Source: a virus
Length of the DNA: 64,000 nucleotides
Strand: one strand, 5' to 3'
IMG/VR virus record: IMGVR_UViG_3300020125_000051
Coordinates: 1-64,000 of that record
Position 1 is the first letter of the stretch; the number at the start of each line of letters is the position of its first letter. The notes below the pieces were generated by a model, which was not told the DNA's origin, made no database searches, and was given only the letters and a program-made list of their open reading frames with translations. Both the position numbers and the translations under genes were made by a program. Shown piece by piece: positions 683 to 56,336 of this stretch.

Positions 683-702
683 GTTATTTTGTCTCCTATT
701 TT

Positions 703-752
703 AGTTGTGCAACACCACAGATGTCTCTAGTACATCTATGATGCAATACAAC
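703..752 (-). repeat. Intergenic hairpin, family A copy 1
   Basis: Outer stem AGTTGT/ACAACT and inner stem AGATGT/ACATCT flank constant motifs GCAACACCAC and ATGATGCAA on the plus strand. It sits exactly between the metalloprotease stop and the next gene's ribosome site. One of seven clear copies in the left arm; see findings. Confidence 0.75.
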
Positions 753-1306
753 TAACTAGCCTTACGTTGCTCCAATGGTGGCCAAATTGCACCAGGATGG
801 ACCGGACAGCCGGCATCATGCATAACTGAGCATGGACTACCGAAATTGTGGTCAAATCCCAATTCGTGACCAACTTCATGATTAACCACCATGATTGTCC
901 AATCAATTCCTTGCGCCATTTTATTTTTGTTTATGTTTACATAGCGTCCGTCATAAGTGGCGCACGAAACACGGTCATTTTCTGCTTCTGTGGGATATGG
1001 TTTACCACATAGCTCAGCAACATTAGTTTCATTAATTTCTCGAACAATAAAATCTGGACTAGTACCCGGCTTAGCTTGATGAATTCCAGCCCATGACCTA
1101 TCATCGTTCAAAATACAATAAACTTGATCTTCAAAATCAGAAGGACCGAGCGCAATATAACTCAGTCCCCAATTGTTTTTATTAGTACCAGGGTGTGTTT
1201 TACTACATGCAGAATTCTCCGCAATCACTGGTGCGGCTACTGTTTTCATAGGACCACAGGCAGTAAGTAGAAAAAGCACACAACCTAGTAAAATTCTAAG
1301 TTTCAT
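752..1306 (-). CDS. Secreted lipoprotein metalloprotease (metzincin, DUF3152-like)
   Basis: 184 aa. The N-terminus is a lipoprotein signal: KLR, hydrophobic core, lipobox LTAC with Cys17 as the lipidation site. Residues 143-153 read HEVGHELGFDH, the metzincin zinc site HExxHxxGxxH with Glu144 as catalytic base. A Met-turn candidate follows at CSVMHDAGC (about 159-167). Cysteines at 34, 64, 100 and 115 could form disulfides outside the membrane. Actinobacteria encode similar secreted proteins (DUF3152 type). Expected role: a membrane-anchored extracytoplasmic peptidase of the infected cell, perhaps acting on envelope proteins or receptors (inference). It overlaps the end of the upstream gene by 11 bp. 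Confidence 0.85.
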   Translation of the reverse strand: MKLRILLGCVLFLLTACGPMKTVAAPVIAENSACSKTHPGTNKNNWGLSYIALGPSDFEDQVYCILNDDRSWAGIHQAKPGTSPDFIVREINETNVAELCGKPYPTEAENDRVSCATYDGRYVNINKNKMAQGIDWTIMVVNHEVGHELGFDHNFGSPCSVMHDAGCPVHPGAIWPPLEQRKAS

Positions 1307-1457
1307 TCCAAAACTTTTCCAATTCTACTGGATCAATGGCAAGCTTCACCATTAAATCATGTTTCAAAGTAGCACGCCTAATCTCAATTTCATCTTCAAA
1401 ATTTAGCTTAGCGCGCCTTATGTACAATCGTTGGATGTCCTTAATGTCAATTTTCAC
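1296..1457 (-). CDS. 53-aa hypothetical charged protein
   Basis: GTG start preceded by AAGGAAACC. Sequence begins MKIDIKDIQRLYIRRAKLNF and alternates Arg/Lys with Glu/Asp, likely all-helical and soluble. The end overlaps the metalloprotease start by 11 bp, so both are probably made from one message. No family recognised. Confidence 0.55.
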   Translation of the reverse strand: MKIDIKDIQRLYIRRAKLNFEDEIEIRRATLKHDLMVKLAIDPVELEKFWNET

Positions 1458-1475
1458 TTTGGTTTCCTTAATATA

Positions 1476-1529
1476 GTTAATTGTACAACACAGTACTCAG
1501 TTACCTGAGTACCATGCAATGCAATTAAC
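1476..1529 (-). repeat. Intergenic hairpin, family A copy 2
   Basis: Outer stem TTAATTG/CAATTAA, inner stem GTACTCAG/CTGAGTAC, with the constant ACAACAC and ATGCAATGC motifs. The outer arm overlaps the stop codon of the DUF2786 gene. Confidence 0.75.
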
Positions 1530-2232
1530 TACCAATGGATTTGCGAGTTGTTCCACCTACGCGAGTCTGACCGATGTCAGCGTTTCTACCAGCAGTAGAA
1601 CCAGCCGCGTAAGCGCCAGCATGAGTAGCATAACTCTGACCAATTTTACTTGTTCTCGGGTATGCCTCGCGGAACATGTTACGTACCGCAACAGACTTCT
1701 CCATTAGTACAATATCCATCCCGCTGGATTCAGTCCGTACTTCATTCTGAGCGCGCGTGTACGCATCACGTACCCGCTGTGAAACAGTAGCCGCATAACC
1801 AGCAATCCAGGAGTGATTAAACGTCTTGCCGTGCACTCCCTTTGGCTTTACTGCACTAGCTAGCCCGTTGTTCATCTGAATGATCAACGAACCATAGAGC
1901 ATAAATACTCTCTCCTGATCATTCTCGAATCCGAATACACGAACGCGAGTGTGATCATCGATAACAATACTTTCACAACCAAAAGCCTTACCAATGTGGT
2001 AAAGAATTTTAGCCTTAGCCAATGCATAGGGTGCTGGAATCCGATAGGACAGATCCACCAACTTATAAGTTGGCTTTGCTTGTCCAGCTTCTAGCATGGC
2101 TTCTTCGATGCCATGCTTAGCCATCAGGAACGTAATCTTATCTACGATAGCGTTACGCTCATCTAGCGAAGTTGCCGGATCCTCTGCCTTAGCCATCAGC
2201 TTAAGGATAATATCTTTCCAATTCTTTTCCAT
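1525..2232 (-). CDS. DUF2786 domain protein
   Basis: 235 aa. Residues about 6-45 (ILKLMAKAEDPATSLDERNA then ITFLMAKHGIEEAML) match the DUF2786 pattern of KLLAKAE followed by a spaced LM..H.I, common in actinobacteria and their phages. The middle (60-160) is alpha/beta with no visible catalytic motif; the C-terminal 40 residues are Gly/Ala/Arg-rich and probably flexible. ATG preceded by a weak AGGATAAAA leader. Family function is unknown. Flanked on both sides by family A hairpins. Confidence 0.85.
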   Translation of the reverse strand: MEKNWKDIILKLMAKAEDPATSLDERNAIVDKITFLMAKHGIEEAMLEAGQAKPTYKLVDLSYRIPAPYALAKAKILYHIGKAFGCESIVIDDHTRVRVFGFENDQERVFMLYGSLIIQMNNGLASAVKPKGVHGKTFNHSWIAGYAATVSQRVRDAYTRAQNEVRTESSGMDIVLMEKSVAVRNMFREAYPRTSKIGQSYATHAGAYAAGSTAGRNADIGQTRVGGTTRKSIGS

Positions 2233-2264
2233 TTTTATCCTTTGTTAGTATTTTATCCATTTTT

Positions 2265-2312
2265 AGTAGTGCAACACCACGCTGGTTTTCACCAGCATGA
2301 TGCAACGCTACT
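2265..2312 (-). repeat. Intergenic hairpin, family A copy 3
   Basis: Outer stem AGTAG/CTACT, inner stem GCTGG/CCAGC around TTTTCA, with constant GTGCAACACCAC and ATGATGCAACGC motifs. Lies between the 2311-2757 stop and the DUF2786 gene leader. Confidence 0.75.
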
Positions 2313-2757
2313 AAATCTCGATCTCTATAATGCCTTCTAGCGCATCTTCAGCATCATTTAGTGCTTTTTTGCGGTCGATCAATTCCTCACCCAAATCTGG
2401 GTTTGCAATGACCCAGCGCACATGAGCCTCAAACTTATCAAAGTCGCTAGTCACACAATAGAAAATACTCTGAGCTTGTTCTTCAGTCAAGCCAAGAGTT
2501 GCCATTGCTGCATCTTCGAAAGAATATGCGTCACTGCCGTCAGGCATTAGTGGCCTATAACCACCATGAGCACGATCATTCACTTTGATTCGATTAGTAA
2601 GAAACTGGGCAGTACCAGCAAAGCAAAACGTTGACTTGCAAAGATCAACATTACCATCATTCCCATATTCTGGGATTACAAACAAGTTTTGATCCCACTG
2701 GTTACGATGTGCACGAATCCAGTCAAGCGTCTGCTCTACCAATTCCAAATTTACCAT
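2311..2757 (-). CDS. Hypothetical protein of a family frequent in actinophages
   Basis: 148 aa, MVNLELVEQTLDWIRAHRNQ. The order of a helical N-terminus, a Cys-containing FCFAGTAQ segment, then an ALGLTEEQAQSIF-type helix resembles small proteins often seen in actinophage early regions. No catalytic motif visible. ATG with AAGGATAAGTA leader. Family A hairpins lie on both sides. Confidence 0.7.
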   Translation of the reverse strand: MVNLELVEQTLDWIRAHRNQWDQNLFVIPEYGNDGNVDLCKSTFCFAGTAQFLTNRIKVNDRAHGGYRPLMPDGSDAYSFEDAAMATLGLTEEQAQSIFYCVTSDFDKFEAHVRWVIANPDLGEELIDRKKALNDAEDALEGIIEIEI

Positions 2758-2790
2758 TACTTATCCTTTGTTAGTTTTATTCCATTCCAA

Positions 2791-2849
2791 TTTAATCGTG
2801 CAACACACTGTCTGTGGCAAATCCCACAGGCAGCATGCAACGCGACTAA
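2791..2849 (-). repeat. Intergenic hairpin, family A copy 4
   Basis: Outer arms TTAATCGTG and CGCGACTAA (imperfect), inner stem CTGTCTGTGG/CCCACAGGCAG, constant GTGCAACAC and ATGCAACGC motifs. Confidence 0.7.
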
Positions 2850-3037
2850 CCTGATACCTTCGCGTTAATTGCAGTATTCACCAATTCTTCAACTTCATCT
2901 TTTGGAAGATTCAGTCTTGTCATTAGGTCTTCAATCATGTTATCATGCCATGTCCAGACCATAATGTTGAAGTGGCGAACCTCAGTTTCTACAATGTTGT
3001 CAATTTCTTCTGGTGTTAGTTGTTTCTTTGTTGCCAT
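2846..3037 (-). CDS. 63-aa hypothetical protein
   Basis: Starts MATKKQLTPEEIDNIVETEV; predicted helical with many Glu/Asp and a C-terminal LNLPKDEVEELVNTAINA helix. AAAGAGGTAAA precedes the ATG. No family recognised. It follows the 27-aa membrane peptide with a 1 bp gap. Confidence 0.6.
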   Translation of the reverse strand: MATKKQLTPEEIDNIVETEVRHFNIMVWTWHDNMIEDLMTRLNLPKDEVEELVNTAINAKVSG

Positions 3038-3038
3038 T

Positions 3039-3122
3039 TTACCTCTTTTTTGTTATGAAAACACATAATTCCATAGCAACTGCAAAAAGAAGTATTCCTG
3101 CAATTGTCCAAATTATTCCCAT
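3039..3122 (-). CDS. 27-aa single-pass membrane peptide
   Basis: MGIIWTIAGILLFAVAMELC then a KKR end: one hydrophobic helix with a positively charged C-terminus. The ATG overlaps the upstream stop by 10 bp (ATGGGAATAA) and it ends 1 bp before the next gene, which supports translation despite its length. Function unknown. Confidence 0.45.
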   Translation of the reverse strand: MGIIWTIAGILLFAVAMELCVFITKKR

Positions 3123-3370
3123 TTTGCTTTGTTCTGAGAAATATGTGTTCCACGAGATTTAAGCATCATTTCCAAGTTATCTACTCGGATCTGTGCCTGC
3201 TCCCATTCACGATCACGTCTAACGTCTTCATATTCCATCGCGTCGCCACCAGTAATGCATTTCGTGCAATACTTAGGTGGTCGACCACGTCGAGACGGAA
3301 TCATGAAGATTTCATTACATGCATTGCAGAATAAGCTCATTAGCTTTTCTGGAACTTCAACTGTTGTCAT
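3113..3370 (-). CDS. Small zinc-ribbon protein
   Basis: 85 aa. Residues 15-38 contain CNAC and CTKC pairs separated by a basic RRGRPPKY segment, a treble-clef or zinc-ribbon pattern common in small actinophage proteins. The C-terminal half is a charged helix (YEDVRRDREWEQAQIRVDNL). Nucleic-acid or protein binding is likely from the fold; the partner is unknown. ATG preceded by AAAAGGACAAAA. Confidence 0.7.
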   Translation of the reverse strand: MTTVEVPEKLMSLFCNACNEIFMIPSRRGRPPKYCTKCITGGDAMEYEDVRRDREWEQAQIRVDNLEMMLKSRGTHISQNKAKWE

Positions 3371-3389
3371 TTTTGTCCTTTTGTTATAG

Positions 3390-3442
3390 TTGATAGTTCA
3401 ACACCACAGTAGTGCGAGACTACTATGATGCAAAGCTATCAA
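3390..3442 (-). repeat. Intergenic hairpin, family A copy 5
   Basis: Outer stem TTGATAG/CTATCAA, inner stem AGTAGT/ACTACT, constant CAACACCAC and ATGATGCAA motifs. The outer stem includes the stop codon of the 21-aa reading frame before it. Confidence 0.75.
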
Positions 3443-3504
3443 TCCAGCGTTACACCAGTAATTCTAGATTTTAGTGTTCTTATTACTTTTTTAACTTGTG
3501 GCAT
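3439..3504 (-). CDS. Possible 21-aa basic peptide
   Basis: MPQVKKVIRTLKSRITGVTL plus D. The ATG forms a TGATG overlap with the stop of the gene before it, the usual sign of coupling in this genome. It is basic and possibly amphipathic. Too short to be sure it is made. Confidence 0.3.
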   Translation of the reverse strand: MPQVKKVIRTLKSRITGVTLD

Positions 3505-3713
3505 CAAGCATCCCAAGATGGTTCATTGTTAACTTTTGAACAACGCTCTACGAAACCCTGAAAACCTAGTTCTACCCAATCATGCTCTTCTAATGGAAGA
3601 CCACAAACCTCACACACTCTAGAGTTTACTAGGTAGTACTTAATAAACTCTTGATCTATGAACAATAGACCATTTAGCTTTTTCTTCTGTATTCCTACTC
3701 CTACGGTTGCCAT
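3504..3713 (-). CDS. Small Cys-containing hypothetical protein
   Basis: 69 aa. A CEVCGLPLEEHDW segment (about residues 34-46) pairs with a later Cys, giving a partial zinc site CxxC...H...C. The ATG overlaps the stop of the preceding gene (TAATG). No family recognised. Confidence 0.6.
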   Translation of the reverse strand: MATVGVGIQKKKLNGLLFIDQEFIKYYLVNSRVCEVCGLPLEEHDWVELGFQGFVERCSKVNNEPSWDA

Positions 3714-3883
3714 TAGTGCAAGCCTCGCATTTGTGAGGTACCGCAGTCGTGACAGACTCGCAGCATAACAGGTGCATTATCCTGCCGATGGTCAAACTCA
3801 GTGGCTTGTGGCACGCCAACCGTTACGGTGCGCCGATGCCAGCGTGACCAACGATGACCTAGACAAATTCCAAATATTCTCAT
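3713..3883 (-). CDS. 56-aa His/Arg/Cys-rich protein
   Basis: Begins MRIFGICLGHRWSRWHRRTV. A CHDC pair near the end plus Cys7, His10 and His16 suggest one zinc site; such CLGHRW...C..CG proteins are common in actinophages. Its stop overlaps the next ATG (TAATG). It is the first gene after a 240 bp gap and so may be the first of the leftmost operon. Confidence 0.6.
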   Translation of the reverse strand: MRIFGICLGHRWSRWHRRTVTVGVPQATEFDHRQDNAPVMLRVCHDCGTSQMRGLH

Positions 3884-4125
3884 TTTCTGTGTCCTTTTTG
3901 TCTAGAAATTTCTGCAAATTTCCGTTTTAAGTTAGATGTGCATATCGTCACGCATCGGTGGATGTGTAACAATAAACTCCGCTAACTTCTACATACATGG
4001 TACATCTTTTTTAATCTGGGTGCAAGGGGTACCACACTACCGGGTTATTTATTTCGTTGCCCAGCGTGGCGTACAGCCCGGCTAGCTGACCCGTCCAGGT
4101 CGGCTAGCTCGGCTGCGCGTCAAGA
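3884..4125 (-). promoter_or_regulatory. 240 bp gap with possible promoter
   Basis: No gene seen. On the minus strand TTGCAC (4025-4020) is followed after 17 bp by TACCAT (4002-3997), an acceptable -35/-10 pair placed to drive the genes from 3883 leftward. The upstream half (4050-4120) is GC-rich with two GGCTAGCT repeats around CCCGTCCAGG that can fold. Base composition differs from neighbouring genes. Confidence 0.4.
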
Positions 4126-4341
4126 TCAAATTACCTGAAAATCTGTACATTTCCAGTCATTAGGTAAGTTATTGTTATCATTGTTAAGTGAGAGCATTCT
4201 ATCCAATTCCTTGAATTTAATGGCAATCAGGTACATAGTTTTCATAAACTCACCTTCCGCCAAAGTCTGCTCCATTACACCCAGAAAGGTCCGGATTTCT
4301 TGGAGTAGTTGCTCCGTCGGTTGTTCATTTGTTCCATCCAT
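4126..4341 (-). CDS. 71-aa hypothetical helical protein
   Basis: MDGTNEQPTEQLLQEIRTFL, then charged helices and an Asn/Asp-rich loop. ATG preceded by AAGGAAATGAAAAT. The start overlaps the end of the upstream gene by 67 bp in another frame, unusually long for this genome, so one of the two boundaries may be wrong. Confidence 0.5.
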   Translation of the reverse strand: MDGTNEQPTEQLLQEIRTFLGVMEQTLAEGEFMKTMYLIAIKFKELDRMLSLNNDNNNLPNDWKCTDFQVI

Positions 4342-4538
4342 ATTTTCATTTCCTTTTCCATTAAAATGTGTGCGTTATACAGATCTTGAATCGTGCCACG
4401 AGCAGAAGCACCACAGGAGCAGGTCAATACGGAAATCGCCCGCCAAAGACCTACTTTGTGATACATTACTTGATGTGGCAAACCGGCAATTAGCCAATTA
4501 CTTGGCAATTGCAAGTTATGTGGTTGTGGTACATTCAA
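4275..4538 (-). CDS. Hypothetical protein with conserved Cys-Gly motif
   Basis: 87 aa. The core LTCSCGASARGTIQDLYNAH (about 38-57) resembles a motif found in small actinophage proteins where a CxCG precedes a helix ending in HxxxE. AGGGAGAATAATTGA precedes the ATG. Role unknown. The last 22 codons overlap the next gene and may be partly non-conserved. Confidence 0.5.
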   Translation of the reverse strand: MNVPQPHNLQLPSNWLIAGLPHQVMYHKVGLWRAISVLTCSCGASARGTIQDLYNAHILMEKEMKIWMEQMNNRRSNYSKKSGPFWV

Positions 4539-4564
4539 TTATTCTCCCTATTCAAGTTTCTATT

Positions 4565-4613
4565 AGGTGAATAACACCACGCTGGCACTTGTCCAGCATG
4601 ATGCAAAACACCT
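4565..4613 (-). repeat. Intergenic hairpin, family A copy 6
   Basis: Outer stem AGGTG/CACCT, inner stem GCTGG/CCAGC, constant AACACCAC and ATGATGCAA motifs. The inner stem equals copy 3 while the outer stem differs. Confidence 0.75.
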
Positions 4614-4788
4614 ACATTTTCTTATCCTTTTCAATTTCTCGCAGACAATTCAAGCAAGTAACTTCTTCAAGATTCTGAGAATAACTCTTAGGTCGGTACC
4701 TATTCCAGCCGTGCAGAGACTTCCCACAGGCAGTAATCTGATTCAACCCAAAAGATATATCGTAGTGTGTTTTAGATTTGGTTGCCAT
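4612..4788 (-). CDS. Small zinc-binding hypothetical protein
   Basis: 58 aa from MATKSKTHYDI. Cys residues in QITACGKS and VTCLNCLREI form a C...CxxC site. This layout (signature ACG near the middle, then TCxxC) occurs in many short actinophage proteins thought to bind zinc. The ATG overlaps the stop of the previous gene. Confidence 0.65.
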   Translation of the reverse strand: MATKSKTHYDISFGLNQITACGKSLHGWNRYRPKSYSQNLEEVTCLNCLREIEKDKKM

Positions 4789-5158
4789 CTTCATCACTTC
4801 GCTTTAGAACGTCTTCTTTGATAGGAATACCTGCTGCTTCAGCAGCACTACGTCGATGATAACCTACTTCATAATTATCATCTTCCAACCTAACGATTCT
4901 AGTACCAGGAATCTGGTACTTTACCTTAGGTGGTTGCACGCTTTCTACTGTGATGCTCTCACCAAAGTTATGGTCTTCTATCATACTTACTTCGTCCGTG
5001 AAAATTTCCAATTTTTCTTCATAATCACGGTTACGCTCGAATTCGGCTGCTTCCTGTGGGGTTTTGCAACCCGGGTAAGTTTTCGAATTAAATGGTACAC
5101 GATGCTCAACCGTAACTGTCTGACGAATTACAATAACATACTCGTTTTCAGTAGTCAT
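4772..5158 (-). CDS. 128-aa hypothetical protein
   Basis: MTTENEYVIVIRQTVTVEHR. Beta-rich N-terminal half, then acidic and helical parts. Not recognised. The start overlaps the upstream stop (ATGACTACTGA) and the end overlaps the next gene, placing it inside the 4612-5336 cluster. Confidence 0.65.
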   Translation of the reverse strand: MTTENEYVIVIRQTVTVEHRVPFNSKTYPGCKTPQEAAEFERNRDYEEKLEIFTDEVSMIEDHNFGESITVESVQPPKVKYQIPGTRIVRLEDDNYEVGYHRRSAAEAAGIPIKEDVLKRSDEDGNQI

Positions 5159-5336
5159 CGCTCTCGCTCTCTCGGTCGTCGCTCCATATAATATAGTTAT
5201 ATGGAAGGACTAGCGCACGCCAGTTAAAAGGATAATCTATATATGTGGTAGACAACGAGGCCCACCAAATTAGATTGGTAGTTACGTAAGCAACCACAAA
5301 AGTAGCAAAAAGTATGGCAAAAATAATACCAAGCAT
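5148..5336 (-). CDS. 62-aa membrane protein
   Basis: MLGIIFAILFATFVVAYVTT is a membrane helix or uncleaved signal, followed by a Trp/Tyr-rich outer segment and an acidic end (SDDRESESDDY). AAAGGTAAGTAA precedes the ATG. Likely an inner-membrane protein with the tail on one face. Function unknown. Confidence 0.6.
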   Translation of the reverse strand: MLGIIFAILFATFVVAYVTTNLIWWASLSTTYIDYPFNWRALVLPYNYIIWSDDRESESDDY

Positions 5337-5369
5337 TTACTTACCTTTCAAATTGACCAAAATTTTCAA

Positions 5370-5427
5370 TTAGTTGTGCAACACAATACTCGTCTGAAAA
5401 AGACGAGTATCATGCAACGCAACTAAA
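5370..5427 (-). repeat. Intergenic hairpin, family A copy 7
   Basis: The longest and most regular copy: outer stem TTAGTTG/CAACTAA, inner stem ATACTCGTCT/AGACGAGTAT, with GTGCAACAC and CATGCAACG between them. Confidence 0.8.
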
Positions 5428-5435
5428 TTTAATTC

Positions 5436-5591
5436 TTACTGTTGTCGTCGGCTCTTTGACAGAAACACCACAGGATCAGCCTTGCACTTGCCGGACTGAT
5501 TAGCTACAGCCCGTGCATATGCCTCATCCTGCAACTTGCGTCGATGATCCCGCATTGCCCGTTTTCCCTGTGGTCCGCTAAATACACTCAT
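5436..5591 (-). CDS. 51-aa basic hypothetical protein
   Basis: Start chosen at MSVFSGPQGKRAMRDHRRKL (GAGAAAAT leader). Arg/Lys-rich with one Cys and an SKSRRQQ end; it could bind nucleic acid, but no motif proves it. First gene downstream of the hairpin/tRNA-like region at 5.6-5.8 kb. Confidence 0.6.
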   Translation of the reverse strand: MSVFSGPQGKRAMRDHRRKLQDEAYARAVANQSGKCKADPVVFLSKSRRQQ

Positions 5592-5660
5592 ATTTTCTCT
5601 TTTCTGGTTCCGACTCAATTTAAAAGTGTCAATTTTTGAGGACTTTATTTGTCAACACAA

Positions 5661-5702
5661 ATAGCAGAAGACAGTTACTGGCGAGTAACTGTCTTCTGCT
5701 AT
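5661..5702. repeat. Perfect 19-bp inverted repeat
   Basis: ATAGCAGAAGACAGTTACT and its exact complement separated by GGCG. On the minus strand it is followed by TTTGTGTTGACA; no U-run, so not a standard terminator. May cap or attenuate the transcript entering the 5591 gene. Confidence 0.8.
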
Positions 5703-5709
5703 CATAAAG

Positions 5710-5775
5710 TGGCTACGGTAGGAATCGAACCTACTAACCCCGGACCGTAACTATTTTTACATAATTACGGTAGCC
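5710..5775 (-). other. tRNA-like element lacking a D-arm
   Basis: 66 nt on the minus strand. The 3' half is tRNA-like: a T-arm with GTTCGATTCC in the loop and stem, then GTAGCC pairing with GGCTAC at the 5' end and a final A. The middle is a single 9-bp hairpin (CCGTAATTA/TAGTTACGG) whose loop contains GTA, a Tyr-type anticodon. There is no D-arm. It may be a degraded tRNA or a tRNA mimic. Confidence 0.45.
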
Positions 5776-5944
5776 CGGCCCGCACGTTCGGAGGGTCTAT
5801 TTAGATACGTCCTAATAGTGCTATATCCAGGGATAGCCTAGAATGGCAGTTGATTTCGGACAATCTGCCAATGTCCTATGTTTTTGTTGCTTTTACCGAA
5901 TTGTCCATATTATTCCTTACCTTTCGGGTTGGATGGACATAGCA

Positions 5945-5970
5945 CGGTATGTCCCTTTCGGGACATACCG
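5945..5970 (-). terminator. Hairpin with GAAA loop after 5988-6755 gene
   Basis: CGGTATGTCCC and its complement around TTTC (GAAA on the transcribed strand), just downstream of the gene's stop. Strong stem but no U-run, so a factor-dependent end or RNA-stabilising cap is as likely as an intrinsic terminator. Confidence 0.5.
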
Positions 5971-5987
5971 CACTAAATCAACCCAAC

Positions 5988-6755
5988 TTACTCGTTGTCG
6001 TCTTCATTGTCCGCTTCGACCGGCTTGCCGGACTTCTTAGCCTTAGCTGCCTTTTCAGCTTCCTTGGCTGCCATGTCCGCATTGAACCGATCCGTTGCTT
6101 CCTGAATAGTCGTCGAAACCTGATCAACGTCTACGCTCTGCTCCTTAAGGAATCCCTGGTACTTCTCGATCAGCTTAGTAGTCTGTTCCTTACGACCAGT
6201 CCATAGCGCAAGCCGGGAACTAGTGTAAAGATCCTTGTACACCGCTGCGCCGAGAAGCGACAGGTTATCCTCTGCGGTGCGCGAGCTAGCGCGCTGGGCA
6301 CCGGTACCACGAGTAGACAAGCGCTCCTTACGGTTAGTCCACCATTCGGTAGCCTCATCACGCTTGATGTAAACTCGCGGTTCAGCATCATCCGGACCCT
6401 TCACAAGAATGTGCGGGATCCGCTCACGCTGAGCCTTGACAGTCTGGTAAACAGACTGCGGAACGACATAGTCATTCGCGTCAAGGTCCAGACCAGCGGT
6501 GATCTTAGCCTTCATTAGGGCCTGAGTCATGTGTGCAGCGAATTCAGTAACCGACATGGCGCCGTCCGGAACCTCTGCAACAGTCTCCACAGGAGCATCA
6601 ACAGTAGCGTCGCCGCTTCCGTCGGTTGCTGAATCCTGCGAATCACCACTAGTAGCTTCGGTGACGTTTTCGGTAGAAGTGTCGTCGGTTGCGGTAGAAG
6701 TGCCCGCAGTCTCGATACCCGCGAAAATGTCAACGTCAGTGTTACTCTGGGTCAT
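5988..6755 (-). CDS. Acidic-tailed hypothetical protein
   Basis: 255 aa. Residues 1-65 are Ser/Thr/Asp/Glu-rich low complexity, 66-215 a mixed alpha/beta core with a KRDEATEWWTNRKERLSTRG segment, and 216-255 a charged coiled coil (AAKEAEKAAKAKKSGK) with an acidic end. GAGAGGCAACAAA precedes the ATG. Higher GC than the neighbours. Not recognised. It is an isolated gene with its own hairpin at each end. Confidence 0.65.
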   Translation of the reverse strand: MTQSNTDVDIFAGIETAGTSTATDDTSTENVTEATSGDSQDSATDGSGDATVDAPVETVAEVPDGAMSVTEFAAHMTQALMKAKITAGLDLDANDYVVPQSVYQTVKAQRERIPHILVKGPDDAEPRVYIKRDEATEWWTNRKERLSTRGTGAQRASSRTAEDNLSLLGAAVYKDLYTSSRLALWTGRKEQTTKLIEKYQGFLKEQSVDVDQVSTTIQEATDRFNADMAAKEAEKAAKAKKSGKPVEADNEDDNE

Positions 6756-8542: not shown

Positions 8543-8665
8543 CTATGCCCCCATATGTCCGTTTTGAAAAAATCTTGCGGGCTGTTTGTCCGACTGGATG
8601 GGAATTGTCCAATTTTTGAGGAGTTGGGTTGGTATGCCCAAATATGTCCGAATTATGACGACCAT
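8543..8665 (-). pseudogene. Possible relic related to the 10318-10491 gene
   Basis: A 40-codon frame without ribosome site contains LLKNWTIPIQSDKQ, similar to FLKNWAKAVQSDDL in the intact 57-aa protein. Both DNA copies share CCTCAAAAATTGG followed after 14 bp by (A/G)TCGGAC. Likely a decayed paralogue or a shared regulatory element; low certainty. Confidence 0.3.
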
Positions 8666-8697
8666 TCAAGATCATCTATGATCGATGATCTTGAATG
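8663..8697. repeat. 14-bp inverted repeat
   Basis: CATTCAAGATCATC and its exact complement around TATGATC, downstream of the 8725-9006 gene on the minus strand. Position fits a transcript-end hairpin. Confidence 0.6.
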
Positions 8698-8724
8698 ATC
8701 GTTACAATTCGGCTTTGTGAGGTT

Positions 8725-9510: not shown

Positions 9511-9532
9511 TTTGTACTCCTAAATGTTGGTT

Positions 9533-9587
9533 TAGGTGGATTTAGTGCAAAACGGAGCAGATGTCCGTTTTGCACTAAATCCATCTA
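9533..9587 (-). repeat. Intergenic hairpin, family B copy 1
   Basis: 24-bp arms with one mismatch: TAGGTGGATTTAGTGCAAAA plus CGGA, loop GCAGATG, then the complement ending CCATCTA. The distal arm overlaps the stop region of the 9585-9803 gene. Confidence 0.8.
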
Positions 9588-9803
9588 ACGTGGCGAGTCG
9601 TACGTATCGAACGACCAACCCCATTTGTCCATTTGTTCGTACTTTGCGTGTGTCCAGTTGATTATGGTAGTAACGTCATCGCTTGTGTCAATTAGGAAAA
9701 AATGGCCGGTTGGTGTTACAATGGCAATTTTGTTCATTTCCGTCTTGACTAGAACGATTGTCCCGTTGTCGGTGGTTGCTACCGCTTCATACCTGTTTGT
9801 CAC
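9585..9803 (-). CDS. 72-aa hypothetical protein
   Basis: MTNRYEAVATTDNGTIVLVK: two or three beta strands, then a Trp-rich C-terminus (INWTHAKYEQMDKWGWSFDT). AGGAGACTAAGGTG leader. Resembles small actinophage proteins that begin TNRY/TTRY and end with a KW motif, but I cannot name a family. Confidence 0.6.
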   Translation of the reverse strand: MTNRYEAVATTDNGTIVLVKTEMNKIAIVTPTGHFFLIDTSDDVTTIINWTHAKYEQMDKWGWSFDTYDSPR

Positions 9804-9823
9804 CTTAGTCTCCTAAAGTAGTG

Positions 9824-9883
9824 AATTAGGTGGACATGCGGCAAAACGGCGCAATGTCCGTTTTGCCTGATCTCTACCTAATT
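9824..9883 (-). repeat. Intergenic hairpin, family B copy 2
   Basis: AATTAGGT and ACCTAATT outer arms, GGCAAAACGG/CCGTTTTGCC inner stem around CGCAATGT. Same outer sequence as copy 1 but a different inner stem. Confidence 0.75.
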
Positions 9884-10102
9884 TCCATATGAAGGCATTT
9901 CGCCCCACGTGTCCTGAAGTGAAGGAGAATCGTAGTGAAAGTCGTCTATGTCCTCAAAGTACGATTCGTCCTCTGAGTCCCAATCGCCTTGAATGGTGTA
10001 TTTGTCTTCATAGTCCGATTCGAGAAAATCGTCCTCGTTCATGAAGTATGCTACTCCTATCATGGTTTGATCTGAAATGTCCGTTTCATCCGGTAGTAAC
10101 AT
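9878..10102 (-). CDS. 74-aa very acidic protein
   Basis: MLLPDETDISDQTMIGVAYF then long Asp/Glu runs (ESDYEDKY, DSEDESYFEDIDDF). AAAAGGAATAAAA precedes the ATG. The charge pattern recalls DNA-mimic inhibitors encoded by phages, but that is only a composition-based guess. Confidence 0.6.
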   Translation of the reverse strand: MLLPDETDISDQTMIGVAYFMNEDDFLESDYEDKYTIQGDWDSEDESYFEDIDDFHYDSPSLQDTWGEMPSYGN

Positions 10103-11161: not shown

Positions 11162-11223
11162 CTTTCGCTAGGGAAAGCACGGAATAGGCACAATGTCCTA
11201 TTCCGCACTTTTTCTAGCGAAAG
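11162..11223. repeat. Long hairpin, 27-bp arms
   Basis: CTTTCGCTAGGGAAAGCACG plus GAATAGG pairs with the sequence at 11197-11223 (24 of 27), loop CACAATGT. Lies just upstream of the membrane protein start. Confidence 0.75.
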
Positions 11224-54628: not shown

Positions 54629-55894
54629 TCACTCAGTACTCGCTTCTTTTTCCTCGTAATAATGTAGTTCTTTCTTCTCAAACATTGTACTAAGTGTATA
54701 CAGGTAATCTTCACCCATATTTTGACCTAGACAAGGTTGTCTAAAAGAACACCAAGTACAAGAGAATCGTCCTGGCTGTGGATAAACCCGAGGTTCATCA
54801 ATCATATCTAACGCTTCAAGTGCAATGACCTTACCGGCATTCTCAACTTCAGCTTCATTCTTATGAATTTGATGGCGCTGCGTAAATCCTGGACCTTCAC
54901 TAGATAACCAATGTAGGTATTCATCGTATAGACCCATTTGCCAACCGTTAATATCATGTTTTTGTATTGTCTTAAGCGCTAGTTCTGGCGTGGTCATCGT
55001 CAGCTTGTTGGTCGAGACTAGCCGACCTTTGTAGGCTCGTTTAAGCACCTCAGGTGCTTGTGGGAACGTCTTTTTTATCTCGACGTAGACGAATCCGGCC
55101 ACGGAAATTCCAAGCGTAGATAATGCCCAAATGTAAGAGACTATCTGGTCATCTAGCTGTAGGAAAGAAGCTTCTTGGTCTTCATCTAATAAACGTGCGG
55201 TTGTTTTCCAGTCGACAATCCAGTATCGTCCTAGTTCATCTTGGAATAATGCGTCGAGTCGACCGCCATACGTTACTGGCAAACCTTTCCAATATTTAGA
55301 ATTTTTACCAAGATCCAATAATGTTACAGTTTTACCATTATGATCAATATATTGTATATCCAAATCTTCCTTAGAAGATTCATGTTTAATGAATTTGGTC
55401 CAGCACTGACTACACTTACACCACAATTGTTCATTGGTGTCAGGATGCTTAATAGGAACTTCAAATCCTACTTCAACTCTGATTGGTGTCCAGCGCTTGT
55501 CATAGTGAGGTGACATGTTGTTACAGTAATACCGAATCATGTTCAAGCCTAGATCAACTCTAGTCTTATATGATTCGAGAATTGTCACATCTGGATCTGA
55601 ATTCATTTTTTGATAAGCTTTTAGCTGCTTGCTGCATCTCGTGCGAAATGCAACAAGCGCTAAATCAGTCCGAATTTCTAATGGAGACATCCAAGTTCGA
55701 GGTTCATAGAAAATCTCCATAGCTTCATGGAATGCGACTCCAAACTCCAGTGGTTCCGCTGTTACCTGTGGGTAGTACATGTCACGGTACACCCAATGCC
55801 AACGACGTCGACACGCACGAAAAGCTCGTCGCTCGGATGTATGTATCTGGTGAGTAAGCTTGTTATCAATATACCACTGGATGTCTTGAGTCAC
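54629..55894 (-). CDS. RecB/Cas4-like PD-(D/E)xK nuclease with Fe-S staple
   Basis: 421 aa. TSERRAFRACRRRWHWVY (Cys28), EFGVAFHEAMEIFYE (His), RYWIVDWKTTAR (Asp and Lys), QLDDQIVSYIWAL (QhxxY) and a final FSCTWCSFRQPC. One N-terminal and three C-terminal Cys in CxxCx5C form match the 4Fe-4S AddB/Cas4 nuclease type. Likely 5'-3' exonuclease giving single strands to the Sak4-like ATPase. Confidence 0.85.
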   Translation of the reverse strand: MTQDIQWYIDNKLTHQIHTSERRAFRACRRRWHWVYRDMYYPQVTAEPLEFGVAFHEAMEIFYEPRTWMSPLEIRTDLALVAFRTRCSKQLKAYQKMNSDPDVTILESYKTRVDLGLNMIRYYCNNMSPHYDKRWTPIRVEVGFEVPIKHPDTNEQLWCKCSQCWTKFIKHESSKEDLDIQYIDHNGKTVTLLDLGKNSKYWKGLPVTYGGRLDALFQDELGRYWIVDWKTTARLLDEDQEASFLQLDDQIVSYIWALSTLGISVAGFVYVEIKKTFPQAPEVLKRAYKGRLVSTNKLTMTTPELALKTIQKHDINGWQMGLYDEYLHWLSSEGPGFTQRHQIHKNEAEVENAGKVIALEALDMIDEPRVYPQPGRFSCTWCSFRQPCLGQNMGEDYLYTLSTMFEKKELHYYEEKEASTE

Positions 55895-56100: not shown

Positions 56101-56153
56101 GTTGCTCCTAGTTATATTTATGTCATTGCTCACCGAAATGAGCAATCACAAAA

Positions 56154-56336
56154 TTATAACCCTCTTGCTTCTATCCTAATTCTTGCTTGTCCTTCACTAC
56201 CAAAATCATAGTTAATGTTTTCAACAATAAATACAATTTCTGGATAATGCACAAAAGTAAGCCTTTGAAAGATGCCGTGTAGCATGATAATAGGCATTTG
56301 ATTTGGTGTTAGTTTCTTTTTCTTAAATGGCCACAT
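56154..56336 (-). CDS. 60-aa hypothetical protein
   Basis: MWPFKKKKLTPNQMPIIMLH. Basic start, then strands (FVHYPEIVFIVENINYDFGS). TGATG overlap with the previous gene. Unknown. Confidence 0.55.
   Translation of the reverse strand: MWPFKKKKLTPNQMPIIMLHGIFQRLTFVHYPEIVFIVENINYDFGSEGQARIRIEARGL

What the first reader, a model, noticed from the sequence alone, without database searches (positions are those of the whole stretch)
703..5427. Candidate structured RNA family at gene junctions (family A)
Seven junctions (703-752, 1476-1529, 2265-2312, 2791-2849, 3390-3442, 4565-4613, 5370-5427) share one design: variable outer stem, fixed GCAACAC(CAC) on one side and (ATG)ATGCAA on the other, variable inner stem. 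Outer and inner stems change but stay paired (AGTTGT/ACAACT, GATAG/CTATC, AGGTG/CACCT; AGATGT/ACATCT, GCTGG/CCAGC, ATACTCGTCT/AGACGAGTAT). That is internal covariation among copies. They lack U-runs, so they are not plain terminators; processing sites, stabilisers or protein-binding sites are possible.
Basis: partly seen in the sequence, partly recalled or inferred. Interest (0 to 1): 0.8.

Follow-up and report, generated by a model that had tools for sequence, protein, structure and literature searches.

The report
Hairpin RNA punctuation between phage genes
In one small group of uncultivated bacterial viruses the gaps between neighbouring small genes are filled by the same kind of folded RNA hairpin, whose sequence keeps changing while its pairing is kept; it probably marks where the long viral message is cut or protected, but that has not been shown by experiment.

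Summary
Seven copies are real and far beyond chance, but the RNA lies on the minus strand, the strand of the flanking genes; the "fixed" segments are mostly paired, not loops. Each copy is a 51-57 nt imperfect hairpin: a lower stem, an invariant U·U mismatch flanked by wobbles (core UUGCAU/GUGUUG), a 13-bp upper stem, and a 4-7 nt loop. A covariance model from the seven finds about 31 more copies in four related IMG/VR phages, all on the coding strand at gene junctions. 19 of 21 pairs show compensatory changes. In 25 of 38 copies the upstream gene's stop codon is embedded at positions 2-4 of the element; the next gene usually starts 8-41 nt after it. A more distant phage (G031) has members plus a second subtype with the same architecture and a different core. 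No Rfam family matches, no U-run follows, and no RNase III is encoded. Elsewhere searched, only chance hits appeared. The best reading is intercistronic punctuation of a polycistronic mRNA, most likely a T7-like processing/stability site for host RNase III. Function is inferred. New RNA family of a known functional kind; interest moderate.

The parts
702..755 (-). copy 1; stop codon UAG of gene 752-1306 embedded at element positions 2-4; next start about 19 nt after the element
   Evidence: cmsearch 65.1 bits; fold -25.6 kcal/mol, z -5.4; stop/start distances
1478..1528 (-). copy 2; stop UAA of gene 1525-2232 embedded; next start (GTG) 20 nt after
   Evidence: 67.0 bits; fold z -8.5
2264..2314 (-). 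copy 3; stop UAG of gene 2311-2757 embedded; upstream of the PHROG_421 gene 1525-2232, whose orthologues in three other phages also follow an element
   Evidence: 73.8 bits; fold z -7.9; orthology
2793..2849 (-). copy 4; stop UAG of gene 2846-3037 embedded; next start 35 nt after
   Evidence: 60.8 bits; fold z -5.3
3391..3442 (-). copy 5; upstream of gene 3113-3370; its orthologues in G001 and G008 also follow an element
   Evidence: 67.6 bits; fold z -5.7
4564..4615 (-). copy 6; stop UAG of gene 4612-4797 embedded; orthologues of the downstream gene 4275-4538 follow an element in three other phages
   Evidence: 61.3 bits; fold z -6.3
5371..5426 (-). copy 7; stop UAA of ORF 5436-5618 ends 9 nt before the element; next start 34 nt after
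   Evidence: 71.6 bits; fold z -8.4
752..5618 (-). array of small non-structural ORFs (752-1306, 1525-2232, 2311-2757, 2846-3037, 3113-3370, 3504-3713, 4126-4341, 4275-4538, 4612-4797, 4772-5158, 5148-5336, 5436-5618) punctuated by the elements; several neighbours without an element overlap
   Evidence: ORF list; families

Best explanation
The elements are cis-acting RNA hairpins that punctuate a polycistronic, non-structural mRNA of this phage lineage. Each fills a gap between two genes, usually from the stop codon of the upstream gene to just before the ribosome-binding site of the next. Shown by sequence: the RNA-level hairpin on the coding strand, its compensatory evolution, the invariant U.U mismatch, the near-constant 13-bp upper helix, and the placement. 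Inferred: that the genes share one transcript; that the roughly two-turn imperfect helix is recognised by the host's double-strand-specific RNase III, as at the intercistronic sites of phage T7 early mRNA, so that the transcript is cut or trimmed into one- to few-gene messages with protected ends. Also inferred: because the stop codon usually lies in the lower stem, a terminating ribosome would open that stem for a moment, so processing could depend on translation of the upstream gene.
For: All 38 copies found are on the coding strand at junctions. In 33 copies 96% of cells pair and 19 of 21 pairs change on both sides (0 of 500 shuffles as high; slid controls fail). Outside the core G.U:A.C is 39:9, as expected for RNA on the coding strand and not for a DNA palindrome. 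U.U is invariant in 33 of 33; the upper helix is mostly 13 bp. It occurs at orthologous junctions: upstream of the PHROG_421 gene in all four main carriers with four different upstream neighbours, and downstream of one gene family in two phages with different downstream genes. An HNH/AP2 endonuclease gene in phage G001 is bordered by an element on each side. No U-run. T7 early RNA, about 7,000 nt, is cut by host RNase III at five sites, and R1.1 site RNA is a hairpin substrate cut into 47- and 13-nt products (PMC4858673). The phages encode no recognisable RNase III or dsRNA-binding domain, so a host enzyme would be needed.
Against: No RNA ends, cleavage assay or expression data exist for these phages. 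A sequence-conserved core (UUGCAU/GUGUUG) is not a known general RNase III requirement (own knowledge) and could instead be a protein recognition site. The host is unknown, so its RNase III was not examined.
Confidence: 0.4

Rival explanations
1. Protein-binding operator: a phage or host RNA-binding protein recognises the UUGCAU/GUGUUG core with its U.U mismatch and sets translation or stability of a regulon of small genes. The second subtype in G031, with the same architecture and another core, would reflect a co-evolved protein.
For: Sequence conservation inside a helix, invariant U.U; many copies beside many unrelated genes; second subtype with a different invariant core, UCAU/YUAA.
Against: No protein with a known RNA-binding domain was found in the array. 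The phage Ro60/TROVE protein co-occurs in four of the records, but Ro-carrying Streptomyces, Gordonia and Mycobacterium phages show no model match in the stretches searched.
Confidence: 0.24
2. Passive mRNA stabiliser: a barrier to exonucleases protecting the 3' end of the upstream or the 5' end of the downstream message, without cleavage inside the hairpin.
For: Strong hairpins at the stop codon; no U-run; pairing rather than sequence kept in most of the stem.
Against: A simple barrier does not need an invariant U.U mismatch or a near-fixed 13-bp upper helix.
Confidence: 0.14
3. Ribosome-linked element: the stop codon in the base of the stem sets termination, re-initiation or coupling between upstream and downstream genes.
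For: Stop exactly at positions 2-4 in 25 of 38 copies; UAG in 19 of those 25, against 82 of 328 genes overall.
Against: 13 of 38 copies have the stop elsewhere and still keep the fold.
Confidence: 0.1
4. Transcription terminator or antiterminator without a U-run.
For: Hairpin directly at stop codons; some actinobacterial terminators are thought to lack U-runs (own knowledge).
Against: No U-run; present at many junctions of one co-directional gene array, with little room for a new promoter behind each.
Confidence: 0.07
5. DNA-level element: operator or promoter-bearing inverted repeat like the ESAS of cluster K mycobacteriophages, or a mobile palindrome or recombination linker.
For: Many copies at boundaries of genes that are shuffled between relatives; position similar to ESAS (PMC3203893).
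Against: G.U excess over A.C on the coding strand; always in coding-strand orientation; terminal stems vary with compensation, unlike transposon ends; most start codons lie less than 25 nt after the element, leaving little room for a promoter; no 13-bp SAS.
Confidence: 0.05

Closest known systems
RNase III processing sites of phage T7 early mRNA (R1.1 and others)
   Same: Hairpins of similar size (R1.1 RNA gives 47- and 13-nt products) at which a polycistronic phage mRNA is cut into mono- and dicistronic messages by the host enzyme (PMC4858673).
   Different: Cleavage not shown here; a conserved sequence core and the stop codon in the stem; no sequence relation to T7 sites tested or claimed.
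ESAS of cluster K mycobacteriophages
   Same: About 50-bp inverted repeat with variable spacer in gaps between non-structural genes, just upstream of starts; a C.A mismatch next to a GUUGA stem in Anaya and TM4 copies when folded as RNA.
   Different: Its authors report that departures in ESAS do not support RNA pairing (PMC3203893), and later work finds promoter-like hexamers in it (PMC11373665); here pairing is kept by compensatory changes, and there is no SAS. Model R2 finds nothing in the TM4 and Anaya stretches searched.
Short inverted repeats of cluster O mycobacteriophages and cluster EG Microbacterium phages
   Same: Many copies, often in gaps upstream of genes.
   Different: Short, near-invariant palindromes of 17-18 bp (PMC4351075; PMC7302621), not covarying two-part hairpins.
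Rfam 15 families
   Same: None above threshold.
   Different: Only miRNA/snoRNA hits far below gathering scores.

Membership tests
T7-type intercistronic RNase III processing site | irregular hairpin of about two helical turns in the transcript | tested here: met
   folds and covariation
T7-type intercistronic RNase III processing site | located between genes of one co-directional gene array | tested here: met
T7-type intercistronic RNase III processing site | cleaved by RNase III in vivo or in vitro | not testable with these tools
   no RNA data; no RNase III encoded by the phages
ESAS (cluster K) | followed by the 13-bp SAS GGGATAGGAGCCC | tested here: not met
   0 matches in the window with up to 2 mismatches
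ESAS (cluster K) | repeat arms conserved as DNA, departures not compensated as RNA pairs | tested here: not met
   19 of 21 pairs compensated
ESAS (cluster K) | in gaps upstream of starts of non-structural genes | tested here: met
Intrinsic terminator | U-run right after the stem | tested here: not met
   1-4 T in the first 10 nt after each copy, none called as terminator
Any Rfam 15 family | score at or above the gathering threshold | tested here: not met
Ligand of a phage Ro60/TROVE protein | elements present in other phages that encode the Ro-like protein | tested here: not met
   stretches of Phredrick (100 kb), BearBQ (50 kb), LRRHood (50 kb) and L158-L164 have no model match; whole genomes were not covered

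The most novel reading that the evidence does not exclude
A lineage-specific RNA punctuation code: a phage- or host-encoded protein or nuclease reads a helix marked by a U.U mismatch 13 bp below the loop, with the stop codon built into the stem, so that cutting or translation of each small message depends on ribosomes finishing the gene before it. The mark has diverged into at least two cores (UUGCAU/GUGUUG and UCAU/YUAA) with the same geometry.
Probability: 0.15. Interest if true: 0.8.

Novelty: new variant of a known kind. Interest (0 to 1): 0.58.

Why it matters
It is a well-supported RNA family, absent from Rfam, found in uncultivated phages, with about 38 copies and a clear geometry. If it is a processing site, it shows a T7-like way of cutting messages in phages whose nearest named terminase relatives infect actinobacteria, and it offers a ready set of natural variants for learning what a double-strand RNA nuclease or an RNA-binding protein recognises. 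Similar-looking repeats in cultured actinophages (ESAS and others) have remained of unclear role since 2011; the covariation test used here separates RNA-level from DNA-level cases.

Tried and rejected
A blastn search of the first 8 kb against named phages gave no match. A single-protein search with the PHROG_421 gene found nothing. A strict sequence pattern found only carriers already known among 2.9 million viral contigs, and one chance hit (weak stems, inside a 187-aa ORF) among 84,980 bacterial and archaeal genomes. Several close relatives without matches are fragments lacking this region (G005 has no homologues of window 0-16.5 kb), so absence there says little. RNase III and dsRNA-binding domains were sought in the phages and not found. 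The Ro60/TROVE protein was followed as a possible partner because it co-occurs in four records and was largely set aside when stretches of Ro-carrying named phages lacked the elements. A lax stop-adjacent hairpin count did not discriminate and was replaced by stricter descriptors. The conserved 255-aa neighbour (5988-6755) was used to look for more carriers: none beyond the known ones.

Full report
What is there. The window is part of an 81,007-base virus record with terminase, portal and tape-measure genes; its terminase is closest among named phages to Arthrobacter phage Wollypog at 37% identity. The left end carries small non-structural genes on the minus strand. Seven of the gaps between them hold the elements. 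Read on the minus strand, the consensus is 5' UUAG-NN-G-C-N-UUGCAU-stem-loop-stem-GUGUUG-N-A-C-NN-CUA 3'. It folds as one long imperfect hairpin, better on minus than on plus.

More than chance. A covariance model from the seven gives them 61-74 bits; apart from the opposite strand of three copies, the next hit in the whole genome scores 17 bits. A descriptor that uses structure and the two U's only gives 11 hits on the minus strand of this genome, none on plus, and 2 hits in 20 shuffled genomes. Within the seven, 13 of 21 pairs change on both sides.

Homologues. Terminase relatives were fetched from IMG/VR and searched whole with the model. Phages G001, G007 and G008 have 8-10 copies each and G033 has one. 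On 33 copies at E up to 1e-4, 19 of 21 pairs are compensated, 96% of cells pair, and slid controls collapse; this alignment was fitted to the model, so on an independent alignment is the cleaner test. U·U is 33 of 33, G·U:A·C outside the core is 39:9, and the upper helix is mostly 13 bp. In the circular order of these genomes most copies lie about 13-21 kb upstream of the terminase (inferred). Several close relatives without hits are fragments that lack this region, as shown for G005. The refined model R2 found a further member in the more distant phage G031 (L134:15840-15900, E 1.3e-4). G031 also holds a second subtype with the same architecture: C·A, one pair, U·pyrimidine, then about 13 bp. 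This too covaries, 17 of 22 pairs on both sides in six copies, on an alignment and a structure that I chose.

Placement. In 25 of 38 copies the upstream ORF's stop codon is exactly at element positions 2-4, inside the lower stem. UAG makes up 19 of those 25, against 82 of 328 genes overall. The next start codon usually follows with a Shine-Dalgarno-like sequence 8-41 nt after the element (one copy at 87 nt, one with no start found; gene calls are from a simple ORF rule). Four copies whose stop lies elsewhere have UGG at positions 2-4, still paired. By gene family, the element precedes the PHROG_421 gene in all four main carriers although its upstream neighbour differs each time; it follows another family in two phages with different downstream genes; and an HNH/AP2 endonuclease gene in G001 has an element on both sides. 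So the element marks junctions and does not belong to one gene.

What it most likely does. The geometry, position and lack of a U-run fit an intercistronic processing or stability site. T7 early mRNA is the best-known case: host RNase III cuts it at five sites (PMC4858673). The phages encode no recognisable RNase III, so a host enzyme is assumed. This step is inference. The conserved core leaves room for a protein-binding operator; the embedded stop codon leaves room for a ribosome-linked function. The phage Ro60-like protein was tested as a partner by looking at stretches of other Ro-carrying phages, and the link was not supported.

Compared with what is known. No Rfam family matches. ESAS of cluster K phages occupy the same kind of place, but their authors found that left and right departures do not support RNA pairing (PMC3203893), and later work noted promoter-like hexamers in them (PMC11373665). 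The present element is the opposite case, RNA-level. Cluster O and EG repeats are short near-invariant palindromes. I therefore call it a new RNA family of a known functional kind (phage intercistronic hairpins), with an unusual stop-in-stem placement, and leave its function to experiment. The paper library holds open-licence papers only, so an earlier description elsewhere cannot be excluded.

Noticed in passing
window 5928-5987 (-), 11162-11223 (-), 9532-9588, 9823-9884, 8648-8712: Other long two-part hairpins, the first directly after a stop codon, some with a different shared core (AGTGCGG..CCGTGCT): probably a second family.
   Followed up: partly
L001:6238-7827 (-), genome 70238-71827: A 529-aa Ro60/TROVE protein (vWA_Ro60 5e-59, TROVE 1.7e-33; PDB 2nvo 1e-104) within a large tRNA array; also in G001, G008, G031.
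   Followed up: yes
window 5710-5775 (-): tRNA-like sequence with T-arm and acceptor stem but no clear D-arm (Rfam tRNA 19.4 bits, below threshold); might be a decayed tRNA or a Y-RNA-like partner of the Ro60 protein.
   Followed up: no
window 5661-5702: Perfect 19-bp inverted repeat with a 4-nt loop between the tRNA-like sequence and the first small genes of the array.
   Followed up: no
window 5988-6755 (-): A 255-aa protein conserved in the carriers (54-56%) and weakly in G031, with no significant Pfam or PHROG match and no named-phage homologue.
   Followed up: partly
L093:6072-6527 (-): HNH/AP2 endonuclease gene between two conserved array genes in phage G001, with an element on each side.
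   Followed up: partly
window 55620-55664 (-), 56110-56161 (-): Two further hairpins among the non-structural minus-strand genes; the second overlaps the stop of ORF 56154-56336.
   Followed up: no
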